Below, piece after piece: positions 15,131-21,782 of a DNA stretch of 31,789 nt; position 1 is the stretch's first letter, and every line of letters starts with the position of its first letter. The notes under the pieces are model-generated. The model was given only the letters and a program-made list of their open reading frames with translations, made no database searches and was not told where the DNA came from. Source of the stretch: an uncultured Enterorhabdus sp. (GTDB lineage: Bacteria; Actinomycetota; Coriobacteriia; Coriobacteriales; Eggerthellaceae); NCBI GenBank assembly GCA_947645965.1, contig CANSES010000009.1:1-31789 (forward strand). The letters are read 5' to 3'. The translations under genes and the position numbers were made by a program.

Positions 15131-15158
15131 GTAGGGGCGGGCTTCAGCCCGCCCGCAA
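15131..15158 (+). repeat. REP-like palindrome containing the end of the sigma factor gene
   Basis: A full copy (GTAGGGGCGGGC, TTCA, GCCCGCCC, then GCAAG). The TGA stop of the leftward sigma factor gene (15146-15144) lies in its loop, and the last residues, LRAG, are encoded by its arm. Confidence 0.8.
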
Positions 15159-16430
15159 GCTGGAAGCGACTTGCGGCTCAAGATCGGAAAGAGAGGTGGG
15201 CTCGGCGGGTGGGAGCGATACGGTTACGGTTCCCTCGGCGGTGTTGCCGCAAAGATCGGTGGCGGTGAGCGTGTAGGTGCCAGAGGGAACGTCGAAGCGA
15301 CAAATGACCCCGGAGCCTTCGGCCGCCGCGTCGCGCACACCGCTCTCGGCCGCTCCAAACCCGCTGGTTGCTTCGGCCTCGTCACCCGTGCCGCCATCGG
15401 TTGCTCCGCCTGCCATGCCATCTGCGCCGCCCTCGGCGCTTCCGGAAACCTCCATCGCCACGGGCTGGTGCACCGTGCCGTCCTCGTCGGTCAGTCGCAC
15501 GTCGCCTATGCCCGATTCGTCAGTGAGCGTCACGACGGTCGCTCCGTGCTCGGTGGTCATGGCGGTTAGCCGGGGGCCGGCAGTATCGGTGGGGGCAGGC
15601 GGCTCCACAGCATCCGCGGCGGGCACGGGCGTCTCTTCGATCACCTCGGACGGCCCGAACGCGGGGCGCTCCATGGTGAAAGCGGCGCCCAGGCAACCCA
15701 CCACGGCCAGAGCCGACACGGCGGCCACGGCGCGCACAGCCCCGTCGATCGGCCGCAGCCGCGCCGGTCGCGGGCGCGGTGCCACGCCTGTGGCCAGAGG
15801 CTCTTCCACCGCATCGGCCAGCAGCACGATGAAGGCGCCGCCGCGTGGCAGATCGCCCAGGCTCGCGCGCAGCTTGCCCAACGCGCGCCGCAGGGTGCGC
15901 TTCACGGTGCTGGGGGACAGTTCCATGGCCGCAGCGATATCGTCGATGCGCATTTCCTGGTAGAACCGCAGCAGCACCGCCTCGCGCTCGCGATCGTCCA
16001 GCACCTCGCGTAGCGCTCGGGCGAGCAATGCCTGCTCGTCGCGGGTGTTCGTGATAATGGCGGGATCGGCGGTATGCTCTGCCCGGGCTTCCTGCTTCTC
16101 GTTGTGTTCGGCCGCTTCCAGGTCGGCCGCTGGCGCGGGGATCTCGCGCGGGCGGCTCGTCCGCTCATAGTGGCGCAGGCACACATTGTGCGTAACGGTG
16201 TTCAGGTAGCCCACGAACGAGCGCGGACGAATCTTAGCGATGTTTTTCCAAGCGGTCAGATACACTTCCTGCAGCAGATCGGGGGCGACCTCTGCATTGG
16301 TTTTCGCAGCGATAGAGAAGAATTGCGCCTGGGCGGTAAGCCGATAGGCTTCCTCGAAGGCGCCCCGATCGCCTGTTTGCGCCTGAGCGACCAAGTGGGC
16401 GAGGTGTTCGTAGGGGTCCGTTTCCCGCAT
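15144..16430 (-). CDS. ECF-like sigma factor with transmembrane anchor and Ig-like ectodomain
   Basis: A 428-residue protein. Residues about 15-95 are sigma70 region 2 (PDLLQEVYLTAWKNI, then SFVGYLNTVTHNVCLRHYER). Residues about 130-192 are region 4 (LDDREREAVLLRFYQEM, then LSPSTVKRTLRRALGKLRAS). A single membrane span follows at 231-251 (AVRAVAAVSALAVVGCLGAA). The last 175 residues should be outside: an acidic Pro-rich stalk, then an Ig-like beta domain split by a Gly/Ala-rich insert, ending in TYTLTATDLCGNTAEGTVTV, a typical repeat-domain motif of cell-surface proteins. The layout implies a membrane-held sigma factor that needs proteolysis, or acts at the membrane. ECF groups with C-terminal membrane extensions are known in actinobacteria. 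ATG is 12 bases after the Rpn gene stop, so the two are co-transcribed. Confidence 0.87.
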   Translation of the reverse strand: MRETDPYEHLAHLVAQAQTGDRGAFEEAYRLTAQAQFFSIAAKTNAEVAPDLLQEVYLTAWKNIAKIRPRSFVGYLNTVTHNVCLRHYERTSRPREIPAPAADLEAAEHNEKQEARAEHTADPAIITNTRDEQALLARALREVLDDREREAVLLRFYQEMRIDDIAAAMELSPSTVKRTLRRALGKLRASLGDLPRGGAFIVLLADAVEEPLATGVAPRPRPARLRPIDGAVRAVAAVSALAVVGCLGAAFTMERPAFGPSEVIEETPVPAADAVEPPAPTDTAGPRLTAMTTEHGATVVTLTDESGIGDVRLTDEDGTVHQPVAMEVSGSAEGGADGMAGGATDGGTGDEAEATSGFGAAESGVRDAAAEGSGVICRFDVPSGTYTLTATDLCGNTAEGTVTVSLPPAEPTSLSDLEPQVASSLRAG

Positions 16431-16433
16431 TCG

Positions 16434-16446
16434 CTTGCGCCCCTAC
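16434..16446 (-). repeat. Half-copy of the REP-like palindrome at the Rpn-sigma junction
   Basis: On the minus strand GTAGGGGCGCAAG carries the TAG stop of the Rpn-family gene and lies just before the sigma factor ATG, where its GGGG may also act as a weak ribosome site. Confidence 0.5.
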
Positions 16447-17318
16447 AGTCCGAGTTCCTCGAAGAGGGCCGTGCGCCGCGCATCGTCGGAGGCCGCCATG
16501 CGCAGGTCGTCAAGGCGCCCTTCGGCCAAAAGGCGTTCAATCAGGGAACTGTAGCGGGCCTCGGCCTCTTGAGCGCCCTCGGCACGACCCTCGGCGCGAC
16601 CCTCAGCAAGTCCCCGTTCTCGTCCCTCTTCCAATCCCTTTTTGCGGGCCAGGCGTTCCAAGATGCGGGCGCGACGGGCGTCGTTTTCCTCGATGGTGCT
16701 CACGCAGTAGAACACTTTGTCCACCCACTTCCGGTCGTTGTTTGCCTTGGCGACGATCTCGTCGATGCGCTGAACGAGCGAGCTTGCGCCGATGCTGCCA
16801 TTTTGCGTGTAGTGTAGCAGATCGCGCAAGACCCCATCAGGCAAAGTGTCCCAAGCCTGTGCATTCAGGGCAATCCAATGGGAATTACAGTCAATTGAGA
16901 GGTCGGGCACCTCCGAGCAGCATCGCTCCAGGGTGTAAATGGGCAGATTGAGATCGAAGGGGTCGTGGGAGCACAGGAACACGATAAAGCTCTCGCACAG
17001 CTCGTCGTAGTCTTTGCCCGGCGCGAGAGTGGCCATGTCGAGGGCGGCCTGGTAGTAGCGGAAACGACGGCCCAACAGGGGCTCGGGGGCACATTGCATC
17101 TCGATGTCGTAGACCCGGTTGCCCTCGCGGGCGTATACGTCCATGCGCACGCCGCGGCTCTCGACGGCTGGTTCCAACACCTGCTCGGCGTTCAGGTACT
17201 CGATGCGATCGACGTCGATACCGAGCACGCAGTGGATGAATTGGCGGCAGACCGATTCGTCCAGCATGACGCGTCCGAACATCCAGCGATTAGTGAAGGC
17301 GAGGCGGGGGCGGCTCAT
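16443..17318 (-). CDS. Rpn-family recombination-promoting nuclease / PD-(D/E)XK nuclease transposase-like protein
   Basis: A 291-residue protein of the Rpn/YhgA-like (PDDEXK transposase) family, whose studied members are DNA endonucleases that raise RecA-independent recombination. The nuclease core is near the N-terminus: VRMDVYAREGNRVYDIEMQ gives Asp60, Glu73 and Gln75, the family's D-x(n)-E-x-Q pattern. The start LAFTNRWMFGRVM is also typical. A charged region rich in Gly-Arg-Glu repeats (GRAEGRAEGAQEAEARY) lies at about 228-260, as in many members where this coiled segment changes length. ATG 17316-17318 follows AAAGGATC. The gene is transcribed away from the surface protein gene and sits upstream of the sigma factor, which it may be co-transcribed with. 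Family assignment is firm; the local role is unknown. Confidence 0.87.
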   Translation of the reverse strand: MSRPRLAFTNRWMFGRVMLDESVCRQFIHCVLGIDVDRIEYLNAEQVLEPAVESRGVRMDVYAREGNRVYDIEMQCAPEPLLGRRFRYYQAALDMATLAPGKDYDELCESFIVFLCSHDPFDLNLPIYTLERCCSEVPDLSIDCNSHWIALNAQAWDTLPDGVLRDLLHYTQNGSIGASSLVQRIDEIVAKANNDRKWVDKVFYCVSTIEENDARRARILERLARKKGLEEGRERGLAEGRAEGRAEGAQEAEARYSSLIERLLAEGRLDDLRMAASDDARRTALFEELGL

Positions 17319-17701: not shown

Positions 17702-18631
17702 ATGGGAAAACGCGAAGGGCTGCCTTGGGCAAGCCGGGAAAGGAAGCGAAGCACCCGCAATCTGCGTCCCGCGTCAGCCTTGCGACGCTCTTCTTTCCTC
17801 GGTCGACTTCTGCGCGCCTCGCTGGCGGTGATCTTGACTGCCGGCCTGCTTCCGTTGCTGCCGGTGGCACCTGTTGTGGAAGAAGCGGAGGCCTTGGCGG
17901 GCACGACGAATTACGAGGATGCGTTCAAGATAATCAATCGCCGTGGTACGCCAGGAGCCATCTCAGGAAACATATTGCGTGCCGCAAGCTATGTGAACGC
18001 AACTGACAGCGAAGTGGTGGGGGACTCTTACAGCTCGTCAGCTCTTCTTATCAGCAAGACAACGATGCCCCTGAGCATGACCTGGCGTGTGCGGGCTTCC
18101 GTGAGTTTCCGAAACTTCAGATTGCTAGCCAACTCCAGTGGCATGGGGGGAAATATGATGTTCGGCTTCACTGAGGGAAACAACGGGAGCTCTCTTAACG
18201 GGGTGATGCTGGCGCTGAACGCCAATGCCAACACGTCTGGTGGCTACACGGCCTATACGGCTCAGAGAAACATGGTCAACTCTAACGGGACAGACGTATC
18301 AGGGACAAGACAAAACATATCGTACTCTCCGATCTACGAGGTTACATTTGGCTATGATGCCGGAGCGGATAAGCTCACTATGGCCGGCGCAGGGTCAGAT
18401 CGGGAATACCCAGGCGTGAGGGCCGCCCTGGGAAACAAGGATTCGGCGTACATGGTTCTCATGGGAACCCTTAATGCCCATTATGCCACCTTAGGGAAAA
18501 AGCCCCTTGTCAACATGGAAACCTATGTCGAGTTCAAGGGAGTGGAGCTGCCGAACCTCAACCCCGCGATCCGCGAGGTGAAGCTGTACGACGCGGGGGG
18601 GGGAGGCTCCTGGGGCCGAACGACGTGGTGA
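17702..18631 (+). CDS. Surface protein, N-terminal part (signal peptide and lectin-like region), frame 1
   Basis: This 309-residue frame starts with ATG after GAGGAGG (17688-17694). A long Arg-rich N-region leads into a hydrophobic core at about 38-58 and a likely cleavage site after ALA near residue 66, so the product is exported. Residues about 67-290 form a beta-rich region with many Ser, Asn, Gly and Thr residues and motifs such as MMFGFTEGNNGSS and EVTFGYDAGADKLTM; the spacing recalls bacterial L-type lectin-like domains, but this is a weak match. Base composition from about 17900 to 18540 is clearly lower in GC than the part that follows. In the given sequence the frame ends at 18631, 12 residues past the nine-G tract, so a truncated protein without an anchor would be secreted. 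Confidence 0.75.
   Translation: MGKREGLPWASRERKRSTRNLRPASALRRSSFLGRLLRASLAVILTAGLLPLLPVAPVVEEAEALAGTTNYEDAFKIINRRGTPGAISGNILRAASYVNATDSEVVGDSYSSSALLISKTTMPLSMTWRVRASVSFRNFRLLANSSGMGGNMMFGFTEGNNGSSLNGVMLALNANANTSGGYTAYTAQRNMVNSNGTDVSGTRQNISYSPIYEVTFGYDAGADKLTMAGAGSDREYPGVRAALGNKDSAYMVLMGTLNAHYATLGKKPLVNMETYVEFKGVELPNLNPAIREVKLYDAGGGGSWGRTTW
18595..18603 (+). repeat. Nine-G homopolymer tract at the first frame break
   Basis: It is the longest single-base run I noticed in the window. It lies in a coding region where the sequence reads Asp-Ala-Gly-Gly-Gly in frame 1. One added G, or two lost, continues into RLLGPNDVVNSGDKVRVVC of the next frame. Such tracts are typical slippage sites in contingency genes. 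Confidence 0.85.
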
Positions 18632-20325
18632 ACTCCGGCGACAAGGTGCGCGTGGTGTGCCGCGTGTACAACAACAGCGGTTCGAAGGGCGAGGCGTACC
18701 CCACGACCCTCAAGCTGGTGGGCAGCATGACGAGCGGGTTCACCCCGTTCGCGGACTCTGGCCATCAGACGAGGGTGATGACGGGGACCGGGGCGGTGGT
18801 GTCCGCGTCGAGCCAGAAGATGGACGGCGCGACGGGCGTGTCCTTCACCCTGTCCGGAACCAACAACGTGAGCGACAGGACCACCGACACCGTCGTCGAG
18901 TACTGGGGCACCATCAGCGGCAGTGCGGGATCGGCGGTGACGGTCGGGCACCAGGCGACGGAGAACACCTTCGGCCTTTCGTCGAGCGCCGTGAAGACGA
19001 CCCTCCTCAACGAGCGGCCCTTGAAGCCCGGCGACGGCTCGGGCTCGGGCGTGGCGGGCACCGACTACCACTACACGCGGCTGCCGGCCCCGAACGCCAA
19101 CGGGTGGAACAACTCGCCGGTCACGGTGACGTTCTACCCCGGCGAGTTCGACCAGATGACGCTCACCCCCTCGGAGGGCGCGGCCAAGGTGCTCACGGGG
19201 GCCGACCCGGCCTGGACGCGGTCGGAGGACACGGCGGGTATCTCGCTGTCGAGCCAGGCCAAGGACACGGACACGGGCGCCGTCTCCACCCAGCGGGCCG
19301 GGCTGGTCAAGATCGACACCTCGGCCCCGCGCATCGAGAAGGACGCGGCCCTGGAGGCCTATACGCTCACCGACGTGTCCGCCGACCCGTCGAAGGCCAC
19401 GTCGGGCATCTGGCGGCTGCACCGCACCGACTCCTCGGGCGCGGTGGCGGCGGGCGCGCGGGCCGGGGTCTACCAGCCGTTCGACCTGACGAACGGCGAC
19501 GGGAAACCCACCCAGGCCGTGGGCAACCTGCCCAACGGCTGGTACGTGGCCGAGGACGCCGCCGGCAACCTCTCGGCGCCGCTGAAGGTGTCCGGGACCG
19601 AGCCGCCGAGCGTCGACCGCCCTGCGGGCAGCGTCGTGGATCCCGGCGATCCCGGCTACACCGCGCCCGTGGGGCCCGAGCTGGGCCCGGGGTCCGACCC
19701 CGTGCCCGACCCCACCGTCACCGAGGACGCCGAGGGGCTGAGGCACGCCGTCATCGAGGAGACGATCTCCCAGATGATCGACCCGGCTGCGCCTCCCTTC
19801 GGCGGCCTGCTGGGGCCGGACGAGGCGACCGCCATGATGGACTACCGCTACGCGGACTCCTCCGCGGCGGCGCCCACCGCCAAGGTGGACGCGCTGCTGG
19901 ACGCCGACGGCAACCCCCTGGCCTCCTTCGACACCAAGGTGCCCGGCGAGTGCCTCATCCGCCGGGTGATCACCGACACCCAGGGCAACACCACCACGAT
20001 CCTGCTGCATTACCAGACCACCCGCGACAACTGCCCGCCGGTGCGCCCGCTGCAGCCGAGCGACCCGGCCGACTCCGACAGTCCCCAGGTGCCGGGCGAC
20101 CCGCTGGTGCCCACGGGCCCCGTGGCCACGCGCCCCGACGGCACCCAGCACGTCGAGGTGGCCTGTGACGTGACCGAGGCCGTCACCCACGGCACCATGG
20201 ACGCCGCAGATGCCGAAGCCCTCTTCAAGCGCCACTTTGCCGCTACCGACGTCGACGGGGGCGACGGCGTCACCCTCACGGTGCAGTCGATGAAAAACGC
20301 AGTGGGGGGGTATCTCCTCCATTGA
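18625..20325 (+). CDS. Surface protein, middle part, frame 2
   Basis: The frame is meaningful from 18604 (just after the G tract) and ends at TGA 20323-20325 shortly after the second tract. It gives about 573 residues with no signal peptide or anchor. GTG codons at 18622 and 18625 could be starts, but there is no ribosome site, so it is best read as the middle of one protein. The first 200 residues resemble secreted beta-sandwich modules (DKVRVVCRVYNNSG). A segment ending in YVAEDAAGNLSAPLKVSGT is an Ig-like module of the 'D-x-AGN' type. Pro-rich linkers of Asp, Pro and Gly separate modules. The first repeat of the four-repeat array begins near 19715 and the second, near 20131, is cut by the seven-G tract. 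Confidence 0.72.
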   Translation: MVNSGDKVRVVCRVYNNSGSKGEAYPTTLKLVGSMTSGFTPFADSGHQTRVMTGTGAVVSASSQKMDGATGVSFTLSGTNNVSDRTTDTVVEYWGTISGSAGSAVTVGHQATENTFGLSSSAVKTTLLNERPLKPGDGSGSGVAGTDYHYTRLPAPNANGWNNSPVTVTFYPGEFDQMTLTPSEGAAKVLTGADPAWTRSEDTAGISLSSQAKDTDTGAVSTQRAGLVKIDTSAPRIEKDAALEAYTLTDVSADPSKATSGIWRLHRTDSSGAVAAGARAGVYQPFDLTNGDGKPTQAVGNLPNGWYVAEDAAGNLSAPLKVSGTEPPSVDRPAGSVVDPGDPGYTAPVGPELGPGSDPVPDPTVTEDAEGLRHAVIEETISQMIDPAAPPFGGLLGPDEATAMMDYRYADSSAAAPTAKVDALLDADGNPLASFDTKVPGECLIRRVITDTQGNTTTILLHYQTTRDNCPPVRPLQPSDPADSDSPQVPGDPLVPTGPVATRPDGTQHVEVACDVTEAVTHGTMDAADAEALFKRHFAATDVDGGDGVTLTVQSMKNAVGGYLLH

Positions 20326-21300
20326 CACCTCGCGGGCGGCCGACTACCTCATCACCTACCTGGTGCGCGACGCGACTGGCAATACGACAACTGTGCGCCT
20401 GACCTATCACCTGGTGTCGTCCCACGTGCCCGGCGTGGTGGTGACGCCTGATCCCGGCACCGACCCGAACCCGCGGCCTGGCGACGACCCGCTGAATCCC
20501 AAGCCGCGGCCCGTCGATCCGCCATACCCGCCTCGGGTGGATCCCGACGGCACCCAGCACGCGGTGATCGACGATGAGATGCGCGTGAAGGTGAAGGAGG
20601 GCGCCCAGCTGACCTTGGCCGACGCTCGCAGTCTGATGGAACGCCGCTACGCCTTCACGCCCGAGGGTGGCGGTGCGGTGACCGAGCTGAAACTGGCCCT
20701 GGCCGGCGGCGCGGGCAACTCAGTCTCCGCCATCGACCTGGGCCGTCCTGGAGCGTGGCGCATCACCTATAAGGTGGCCGACGCCAGCGGCAACACCATT
20801 ACGGTGAACCTGCGCTACGTGGTGGCGACTGACGCGCCTACGGTGACGCCCACGCCCGACCCCGAGCGCCCGGGCGTGGGTCCCGGCGGCCAACCGCTGC
20901 CGCCAGGCGAGACGAACGTTGATCCCGAGACGGGCCTGACCCACACGGTGGTGACCGATCATGTGGTGACCCGCACGTCCGACTTGCTGCTGACGCCCGA
21001 GGCCATGGCCGAATTCATCGGCGCGCGCTACGATCTTGCCCCGGGTTCGTCGGGCGGCGGTACCGCCCCGTTGAGCGTTGTCCTCACGGCGGCGAGCGCT
21101 CGCGCTCAGGCGTCGACTGCGGCTTCTTCGGATATCGTGGCCGGCGAGGTGCGTCTTTTCAACGCCGCGGGCGCGCCTGCGCTGGTCATCGACTGTTCGG
21201 CGCCCGGCGTGTGGTACGCCGAGCAGGTGTTTTCCGACTCCTTTGGCGACACCACCACGCTGAAGCTCACCTACGAGCTGCGCGAGGGCGACGTCCAGGG
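19715..21300 (+). repeat. Four tandem Ig-like protein repeats, about 400 bases each
   Basis: Units begin near 19715, 20131, 20540 and 20923. Each starts with a line such as PDGTQHAVIDDEM, PDGTQHVEVACDV or PETGLTHTVVTDHV and has a middle 'A-x-x-L-M-E-x-R-Y' motif (DARSLMERRYAF, EAMAEFIGARYDL). Each ends in a beta strand pair with 'D-x-x-GNTTT' (DATGNTTTVRLTY, DASGNTITVNLRY, DSFGDTTTLKLTY), followed by a Pro/Asp-rich linker. The second and third units share the exact DNA string CCCGACGGCACCCAGCACG. Confidence 0.78.
20304..20310 (+). repeat. Seven-G homopolymer tract at the second frame break
   Basis: The tract lies inside the second Ig-like repeat. In the present sequence frame 2 reads VGGYLLH and stops. 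With six G the protein would continue as VGGISSIDTSRAADYLI, matching the equivalent place in the third repeat (NSVSAIDLGRPGAWRI). Confidence 0.85.
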
Positions 21301-21607
21301 CGGCATCTCCGACGACGGCAATGGCGGCTCCAATGGCGGCACCGGCAACGTGTCCGTGAGTGAGGCCGGGCCGCTGACCGGCGACGGCTCTGGTTTGGGA
21401 CGCAGCCGGTGGGCATCGGCCATTCATCAGTTGCCCCAGACGGGCGGCATTCTGGGCCCCTGCCCGCTGCACATCATGTTCGTGCTGATCATGGTACTGT
21501 CGGGCGCCTACACCCTGATGCGCCTGCGCCAGGAATCGTCGGGGCGCGAGGAGCGCCGCCGTCGCGATGCCGAATGGAAGGAGTTTCGCCGTGAAGCTGT
21601 CCGATAA
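20363..21607 (+). CDS. Surface protein, C-terminal part with LPQTG sorting signal, frame 3
   Basis: A 414-residue frame; family-like sequence actually begins at 20312 (ISSIDTSRAADYLITYLV), and the GTG at 20363 is only the first possible start codon, with no ribosome site. It holds the end of repeat two, all of repeats three and four, a short Gly/Asn/Ser stretch, and then a sortase signal: LPQTG (21431-21445), a hydrophobic span (about 21465-21515, HIMFVLIMVLSGAYTLM) and a tail rich in Arg and Glu (RLRQESSGREERRRRD). Sortase would join it to the cell wall after cutting between Thr and Gly. No sortase gene is in the window. The stop overlaps the next small gene by 17 bases. Confidence 0.78.
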   Translation: MRDATGNTTTVRLTYHLVSSHVPGVVVTPDPGTDPNPRPGDDPLNPKPRPVDPPYPPRVDPDGTQHAVIDDEMRVKVKEGAQLTLADARSLMERRYAFTPEGGGAVTELKLALAGGAGNSVSAIDLGRPGAWRITYKVADASGNTITVNLRYVVATDAPTVTPTPDPERPGVGPGGQPLPPGETNVDPETGLTHTVVTDHVVTRTSDLLLTPEAMAEFIGARYDLAPGSSGGGTAPLSVVLTAASARAQASTAASSDIVAGEVRLFNAAGAPALVIDCSAPGVWYAEQVFSDSFGDTTTLKLTYELREGDVQGGISDDGNGGSNGGTGNVSVSEAGPLTGDGSGLGRSRWASAIHQLPQTGGILGPCPLHIMFVLIMVLSGAYTLMRLRQESSGREERRRRDAEWKEFRREAVR

Positions 21608-21782
21608 GCTGCTCTACGCCCTGTTCGTGCTGGCCGCCGTTGCCCTCGGCGCCCTTCGCTTCTGCTCGGCCGACTGGCTCTGGGCCATCGCGACCGTAGC
21701 CGTTGTGCTCGCCTGCGCCTTCCTCTTGCATCACCGCTGCCAGAAGGGCGCTCCCGATGCGCCAGAAAGGGAAAGACCGTAG
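21591..21782 (+). CDS. 63-aa two-span membrane protein coupled to the surface protein gene
   Basis: I choose GTG 21591 because AAGGAG (21578-21583) is at the right distance. The upstream ATG 21567 would add eight residues and lacks such a site. The product has two hydrophobic segments (LLYALFVLAAVALGALRF and WLWAIATVAVVLACAFLL) and a short polar tail. It overlaps the last codons of the LPQTG gene by 17 bases in another frame, suggesting translational coupling. I recognise no family; a role in display or turnover of the surface protein is only a guess. The TAG stop (21780-21782) lies in the arm of a REP-like palindrome. Confidence 0.7.
   Translation: MKLSDKLLYALFVLAAVALGALRFCSADWLWAIATVAVVLACAFLLHHRCQKGAPDAPERERP

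What the first reader, a model, noticed from the sequence alone, without database searches (positions are those of the whole stretch)
17702..21607. LPXTG surface protein gene with two compensating G-tract frame breaks: possible phase-variable adhesin
Seen: one signal peptide, one LPQTG anchor and continuous domain sequence over 1302 codons, interrupted only at a nine-G run (18595-18603) and a seven-G run (20304-20310). Gain of one G at the first and loss of one at the second restores the full frame; both breaks are at homopolymers and no other damage is seen. In this sequence the truncated product would be exported but not anchored. Known: single-base tracts in coding regions are classic contingency (phase variation) sites in surface proteins. 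Inference: the locus may switch between anchored, secreted and no product. Sequencing error at homopolymers is the main rival explanation.
Basis: partly seen in the sequence, partly recalled or inferred. Interest (0 to 1): 0.75.

Follow-up and report, generated by a model that had tools for sequence, protein, structure and literature searches.

The report
Lectin-headed surface adhesin with G-tract breaks
A gut bacterium related to Adlercreutzia mucosicola carries a wall-anchored, lectin-headed surface protein gene whose reading frame is broken at runs of G, and database relatives show the same kind of run both open and broken, so the cell probably switches this protein by replication slippage, much as Bifidobacterium switches its pili.

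Summary
In detail: G9 (18595-18603) and G7 (20304-20310) are the only homopolymers of 7 or more in the window, and they sit at the only two frame breaks of a gene with a signal-peptide-like start and LPQTG.

Tract 2 (G7): a recurrent break site. Three relatives (P0004, P0005, P0007) read through the tract-1 site and stop at tract 2 with the same out-of-frame tail; P0039 is open there. At the homologous site of another lineage P0058 is open and P0012 closed after near-identical sequence; P0053/P0022 are a pair at an earlier stalk repeat. A paralog has a G tract before its signal peptide, closed in A. mucosicola, open in relatives. The piece after tract 2 shows purifying selection (dN/dS 0.105).

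Tract 1 (G9): private; 0 of 48 relatives have a Gly run there. Recent slippage or assembly error.

The head folds like an L-type lectin. Closest known case: the Bifidobacterium breve G-tract pilin switch (PMC9187656). Length variation within one clone was not tested, no strict full-length ortholog was found, and the A. mucosicola syntenic locus is decayed, so decay or a silent-donor role stays open.

The parts
17702..18631 (+). First open piece, 309 aa: signal-peptide-like segment (about residues 32-62, by eye), lectin-like head (about 66-298), then the tract-1 break
18595..18603 (+). Tract 1, G9, at the head-stalk junction; frame break; no Gly run here in 48 relatives
18625..20325 (+). Second open piece, 566 aa, stalk; ends ..NAVGGYLLH* just after tract 2
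20304..20310 (+). Tract 2, G7, at what looks like a glycine turn of a stalk repeat (by eye; the stalk was not modelled); frame break shared with P0004, P0005, P0007; open in P0039
20363..21607 (+). Third open piece, 414 aa: Ig-like stalk (PF16403, E 0.0026, below the curated cut-off), LPQTG sorting signal at residues 357-361; dN/dS 0.105 against A. mucosicola
15144..16430 (-). ECF sigma factor gene with a C-terminal membrane-like segment (by eye); homologs lie divergently beside five A. mucosicola paralog loci
16443..17318 (-). Rpn-family PD-(D/E)XK nuclease / putative transposase gene

Best explanation
This is a stalked, lectin-headed, sortase-anchored adhesin gene of an Adlercreutzia close to A. 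mucosicola, and its tract 2 is a slippage-prone G tract that sets the reading frame. In the open state the head and the whole stalk are wall-anchored. When tract 2 is closed the head and half of the stalk (871-876 aa in relatives) would be exported without an anchor. In this sequence tract 1 is also closed, so only the 309-aa head piece would be exported. Shown: the two breaks, the three open pieces, open and closed relatives at the same Gly run, purifying selection on the last piece. Inferred: slipped-strand mispairing as the cause, reversibility, secretion of the short forms, and an adhesin role.
For: Both breaks lie at the only homopolymers of 7 or more in the window. P0004, P0005 and P0007 (92, 85 and 72% identical to the middle piece) read through the tract-1 site and stop at tract 2 with ..GG(G)YLLH*; P0039 is open there with ..NSSGGG|ISSID. 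P0058 (open) and P0012 (closed) are near-identical for about 170 residues up to ..STSGGG (they differ more further upstream) and then part; all 24 symbols of the closed tail can be read from another frame of DNA that encodes the open tail. P0053 (open) and P0022 (closed) part at DASGGG in an earlier stalk repeat, 8 of 8 symbols. Of 50 sites homologous to tract 2 that a motif picked out, sites without a Gly run are 34 open and 0 closed, sites with one 11 open and 5 closed, the window being one of the 5 (Fisher p 0.002, rows not independent). Separate C-terminal ORFs starting just past tract 2 recur (P0070, P0071, P0072, P0074). The last piece has dN/dS 0.105 at dS 0.275 with no stop or indel. 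A paralog has a G13 tract between ATG and signal peptide, closed in A. mucosicola; P0059, P0061 and P0062 are open there with RAAGGG. PMC9187656 (abstract, sections 15, 21, 22 and further passages seen) shows the same layout, signal peptide and LPXTG on two ORFs split by a G tract, switching by replication slippage in B. breve.
Against: No full-length form of the strict orthologs was found: the search with P0004 (length range 481-1533) returned 59 proteins; after itself the closest is P0005 (77%, closed), and the closest that is open at the site is P0008 (73% over 54% of the query). P0039 is open only inside a mosaic of another paralog type. All four window-type closed forms share one frame, which random switching need not give. 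A. mucosicola has a 2.6-kb deletion in this gene, a deletion in the neighbouring sigma gene and a frame break in the Rpn gene. Tract 1 has no counterpart in relatives. G7 is short for a contingency tract and not rare by codon usage. Eleven sites with a Gly run of two or more are open. Relatives were compared as proteins, so their tract lengths in DNA were not seen.
Confidence: 0.6

Rival explanations
1. Decay, with or without a donor role: the locus is a dying copy of a paralog family, kept similar to its kin by gene conversion; the broken copy may act as a silent donor for expressed paralogs.
For: The A. mucosicola syntenic copy lost its middle, the sigma gene lost an internal part and the Rpn gene is frame-broken. 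P0039 looks like another paralog type with a patch from a window-type locus that includes tract 2. The three closest relatives that span tract 2 are all closed there.
Against: Last piece dN/dS 0.105, below MurB 0.252 and TauE 0.182 though above TrkH 0.028. All three pieces are open with no other stop. Open/closed pairs at Gly runs occur in other lineages.
Confidence: 0.2
2. Recoding: the tract-2 closed frame is the normal gene and a fraction of ribosomes or RNA polymerases slip at the G run to make the anchored form.
For: All four window-type closed forms have the same frame and the same tail, separate open C-terminal halves recur, and the last piece is under purifying selection.
Against: P0039 is open at the same run. 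P0012 is closed with a different tail. The RNA around tract 2 folds no better than shuffled sequence (z -0.27).
Confidence: 0.08
3. Sequencing or assembly error at one or both tracts, most likely at tract 1.
For: Tract 1 is private (0 of 48 relatives); P0004, 98% identical in the head, reads DASGKLLG there. G tracts are hard to sequence (PMC9187656, section 22 read). The A. mucosicola assembly has an N gap with duplicated ends beside a G13 tract.
Against: Tract-2 closure recurs in three relatives. In the stretches aligned with A. mucosicola I pick out five single-base differences at runs of 4-5 (9282, 17085, 17306, 17487, 17653): two lie between genes, two in the Rpn gene, where the A. mucosicola copy is the one in two frames, and one in an ORF of doubtful reality.
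Confidence: 0.12

Closest known systems
Bifidobacterium breve UCC2003 sortase-dependent pilus G-tract switch, bbr_0113ab and bbr_1889ab (PMC9187656; abstract, sections 15, 21, 22 and further passages seen)
   Same: Gut actinobacterium; signal peptide and LPXTG on two ORFs split by a coding G tract; the sequenced state is closed; tract length decides whether the full surface protein is made
   Different: There the tract lies near the 5' end of a pilin gene in a cluster with its own sortase and the closed product is very short. Here the tracts lie at the head-stalk junction and in the stalk, no pilus cluster was seen, and the closed product would keep the lectin-like head
C-terminal phase variation in Helicobacter canadensis (PMC2823697; abstract and section list seen)
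   Same: Tract far inside the coding region, so slippage changes the C-terminus rather than abolishing the protein
   Different: Another phylum (recalled); the abstract does not speak of sortase-anchored proteins
Variable homopolymer tracts in Gardnerella surface protein genes (PMC11287997; passages seen)
   Same: Actinobacteria; tracts of 8 or more in genes with LPXTG and adhesin-like motifs, one shown to vary in vitro
   Different: The passages name other domains (Rib, GA, FIVAR); about 70% of G/C tracts there lie upstream of ORFs
Lectin-domain surface proteins SraP, Aap, SasG, Pls and YwfG (Foldseek hits)
   Same: Surface proteins with an L-type-lectin-like domain; that they are stalked and wall-anchored is recalled
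   Different: 10-15% sequence identity in the listed hits; whether their genes carry such tracts was not examined

Membership tests
Phase-variable (contingency) locus by homopolymer slippage | Homopolymer tract in the coding region whose length sets the reading frame | tested here: met
Phase-variable (contingency) locus by homopolymer slippage | Both reading states occur at the same tract among relatives | tested here: met
   Tract 2 and homologous sites: P0039/P0007, P0058/P0012, P0053/P0022. Not met for tract 1
Phase-variable (contingency) locus by homopolymer slippage | Reversible length variation within a clone | not testable with these tools
   no reads or colonies available
LPXTG sortase-anchored surface protein | N-terminal export signal and C-terminal LPXTG, hydrophobic segment, basic tail | tested here: met
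   Read from sequence: LPQTG and tail; hydrophobic N-terminal segment; they lie in different frames here. No signal-peptide predictor was run
L-type lectin domain | Legume-lectin beta-sandwich fold | tested here: inconclusive
   Model pLDDT 84-96 in blocks of ten from 71 to 280; best Foldseek hits SraP, YwfG, Aap, SasG, Pls, probability 1.00 but TMq 0.33-0.44; Pfam PF18483 only at E 0.079 and 0.13 in 2 of 8 relatives, far below its cut-off, and no Pfam match for the window's first piece
L-type lectin domain | Sugar- and metal-binding residues | not tested
   -
B. breve-type G-tract pilus cluster | Pilin operon with a dedicated sortase | tested here: not met
   In the rows shown for the 19 window ORFs scanned with NCBIfam none is named a sortase or pilin; the next large gene downstream is murB on the other strand. 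Not every window ORF was scanned
Programmed frameshift gene | Stimulatory structure or conserved slip site without in-frame alleles | tested here: inconclusive
   No unusual fold at tract 2; an open allele exists (P0039)

The most novel reading that the evidence does not exclude
A whole Adlercreutzia family of lectin-headed stalk adhesins uses G tracts that arise again and again at the glycine turn of its stalk repeats as switches between anchored and released lectin. The tracts are also passed between paralogs by gene conversion, and each paralog pairs with its own divergent membrane-tethered ECF sigma factor.
Probability: 0.3. Interest if true: 0.75.

Novelty: new variant of a known kind. 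Interest (0 to 1): 0.52.

Why it matters
If true, it extends productive G-tract slippage from bifidobacterial pili to lectin-like adhesins of Coriobacteriia. It puts the switch in the stalk, so that the closed state could release a soluble lectin instead of silencing the gene. In the listings of my searches I saw no paper on G-tract phase variation in Adlercreutzia or Eggerthellaceae; several listings were cut (15 of 79, 15 of 124, 8 of 50, 8 of 60 papers shown) and most subscription papers are not in that library.

Tried and rejected
Compensating pair as a conserved unit: rejected, because tract 1 has no Gly run in any of 48 relatives. A first count (0 of 42) used a motif that missed the window's own Gly run, and a second (0 of 34) missed the window too; one search uses a looser motif, finds the window's run as a control, and replaces both.

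Simple always-closed recoding: considered when searches showed only closed orthologs, weakened by the open P0039 and an unremarkable RNA fold.

Whether G tracts of 9 or more in A. mucosicola are mostly between genes (24 tracts in 20 fetched stretches): dropped, because the same coding score fails on the coding tract in L026.

The same caution weakens the start positions of P0070-P0072 and P0074; the stop positions of P0004, P0005, P0007, P0012 and P0022 do not depend on it.

In one search the values for RsgA and ORF 29254 (misaligned, stops in the reference) and for ORFs 9255, 10275 and 13866 (dN/dS above 1, probably wrong strand) were set aside. In one search six motif matches at another place were set aside.

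The two L026 tract copies (G11TG and G13) have the same total length and differ by one base beside an assembly gap, so they are not counted as length variation. The viral-contig scan found no relative. A search for papers on ECF sigma factors with C-terminal extensions was only listed, not followed.
Full report
Observation. The window sequence has ATG at 17702, G9 at 18595-18603, G7 at 20304-20310, an LPQTG sorting signal and a stop at 21605-21607, 1302 codons in all. Three open pieces in different frames cover it: 309, 566 and 414 aa. The two tracts are the only homopolymers of 7 or more in the window. By local codon usage a run of 9 or more G is expected in 235 of 5000 draws for the three pieces and two runs of 7 or more in 146 of 5000, so tract length alone is only mildly unusual.

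Where it comes from. No whole genome is held for the window. The downstream 8.8 kb is 92% identical to the A. mucosicola DSM 19490 genome (L001, G001), so the source is a close relative. Window-type stalk matches at E 1e-15 or better occur in 2 of 138 genomes of the family.

A. mucosicola. Five loci match the middle piece from near its start: C5:124609, C9:87102, C2:155741, C1:1929 and, shorter and with one stop inside, C5:4765. The syntenic gene itself (L022) lacks the stretch matching window 17972-20617 and changes frame at the junction. The neighbouring sigma gene has lost about residues 157-365 and the Rpn gene changes frame near residue 78. The remaining C-terminal piece is open, without gaps over 1170 aligned bases, and gives dN/dS 0.105 at dS 0.275 over 329 codons; other genes give MurB 0.252, TauE 0.182, the sigma part 0.137, the Rpn part 0.123, TrkH 0.028, the histidine kinase 0.033 and the response regulator 0.030. 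This pairwise value includes the time before either break.

Relatives in the protein collection. The middle piece found 26 proteins, P0004 found 59 and the last piece 14; the length limits of each search exclude some forms. P0004 (876 aa), P0005 (871 aa) and P0007 (874 aa) start with the same leader type, read through the tract-1 site and end NAGGGYLLH, NSSGGYLLH and NSSGGGYLLH; the window's middle piece ends NAVGGYLLH. P0070, P0071 and P0072 (94, 93 and 87% identical to the last piece) and P0074 (62%, Adlercreutzia sp. R7) are separate C-terminal ORFs that start at about the same place past tract 2. P0004 and P0072 both report a longest contig of 9543 bases, which suggests one contig but was not checked. 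P0039 reads through the site open, NSSGGGISSIDTSRAADYLITYLVRD, inside a gene that is otherwise of another paralog type.

Open and closed pairs. At 50 sites picked out by a motif in the fetched proteins, those without a Gly run are 34 open and 0 closed, those with a run of two or more 11 open and 5 closed, the window among the 5 (Fisher p 0.002; related rows are not independent, and search length limits shape the sample). P0058 and P0012 agree almost fully for about 170 residues up to STSGGG, though they differ more upstream, and then part; every one of the 24 symbols of the closed tail is readable from another frame of DNA encoding the open tail. P0053 and P0022 part at DASGGG, which I read as the corresponding turn of an earlier repeat (8 of 8 symbols). 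The window-type tail YLLH* fits P0039 likewise (5 of 5). P0016 also ends after a GGGG run, where its open relatives P0054 and P0055 have no run; its tail was not tested in the same way.

Tract 1. Of 48 relatives in which a motif finds the head-stalk site, none has a Gly run there; the window does. P0004, 98% identical in the head, reads DASGKLLG. Tract 1 is therefore private: a recent event or an error.

A tract before the signal peptide. In the A. mucosicola paralog L026 a G13 run (G11TG in a second copy beside an assembly gap) lies between ATG and signal peptide, and the ATG frame ends after about 30 codons. P0059, P0061 and P0062, which are near-identical at this end, continue in frame there with RAAGGGCLQ. 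Start codons further in were not excluded. By its overlapping matches that run is the longest of those listed for G001 in the scan for nine or more G.

Protein. The model of the head has mean pLDDT 84-96 in each block of ten from residue 71 to 280. Its best PDB matches are SraP, YwfG, Aap, SasG and Pls (Foldseek probability 1.00, E down to 5.5e-09, TMq 0.33-0.44). Pfam supports this only weakly, in two of eight relatives (E 0.079 and 0.13). The stalk matches PF16403 above its cut-off in six of eight relatives scanned.

Mechanism. Slippage at tract 2 would switch between a wall-anchored protein and an exported form without anchor. Decay with gene conversion, assembly error (most likely at tract 1) and recoding remain possible, in that order of weight.

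Known work. In B. breve UCC2003 two pilin genes have the secretion signal and LPXTG on two ORFs split by a G tract, the sequenced state is closed, and open lengths are enriched in mice (PMC9187656; abstract, sections 15, 21, 22 and further passages). C-terminal phase variation is described in H. canadensis (PMC2823697; abstract). Gardnerella has many tracts of 8 or more, some in surface protein genes (PMC11287997; passages). Homopolymeric tracts inside coding genes have been called a general regulatory device (PMC2831843; abstract). A paper on E. lenta prophages speaks of phase variation by recombinases and retroelements, not G tracts (PMC8778435; passages). In the listings of six searches (several cut to the top rows) I saw nothing on G-tract switching in Adlercreutzia or Eggerthellaceae.

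Noticed in passing
15144-16430; L023, L024, L025, L026, L027: A divergently oriented ECF-sigma-like gene, 37-47% identical over about 400 aa, lies beside each of five A. mucosicola adhesin paralogs as it does here. The window protein has a C-terminal membrane-like segment and a tail that resembles the adhesin repeats by eye.
   Followed up: partly
L022 (G001:C2:166000-184500): In A. mucosicola the sigma, Rpn and adhesin genes of the syntenic locus all carry deletions or frame breaks.
   Followed up: partly
21591-21782: A 63-aa membrane-like ORF with a GTG start overlaps the end of the adhesin gene (read by eye). In the L026 frame a similar-looking stretch is fused to the adhesin C-terminus.
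   Followed up: no
18002-18601 against 18602-21601: G+C rises from 54-56% in the head to 67-74% in the stalk. P0005 and P0007 share stalk sequence but have different heads, which suggests head exchange.
   Followed up: partly
L026 4438-5109: A 50-base N gap in the A. mucosicola assembly has the same gene 5' end on both sides, close to the G tract.
   Followed up: no
P0021, P0027: Two further relatives end early at places without a Gly run, one in a proline-rich linker.
   Followed up: no
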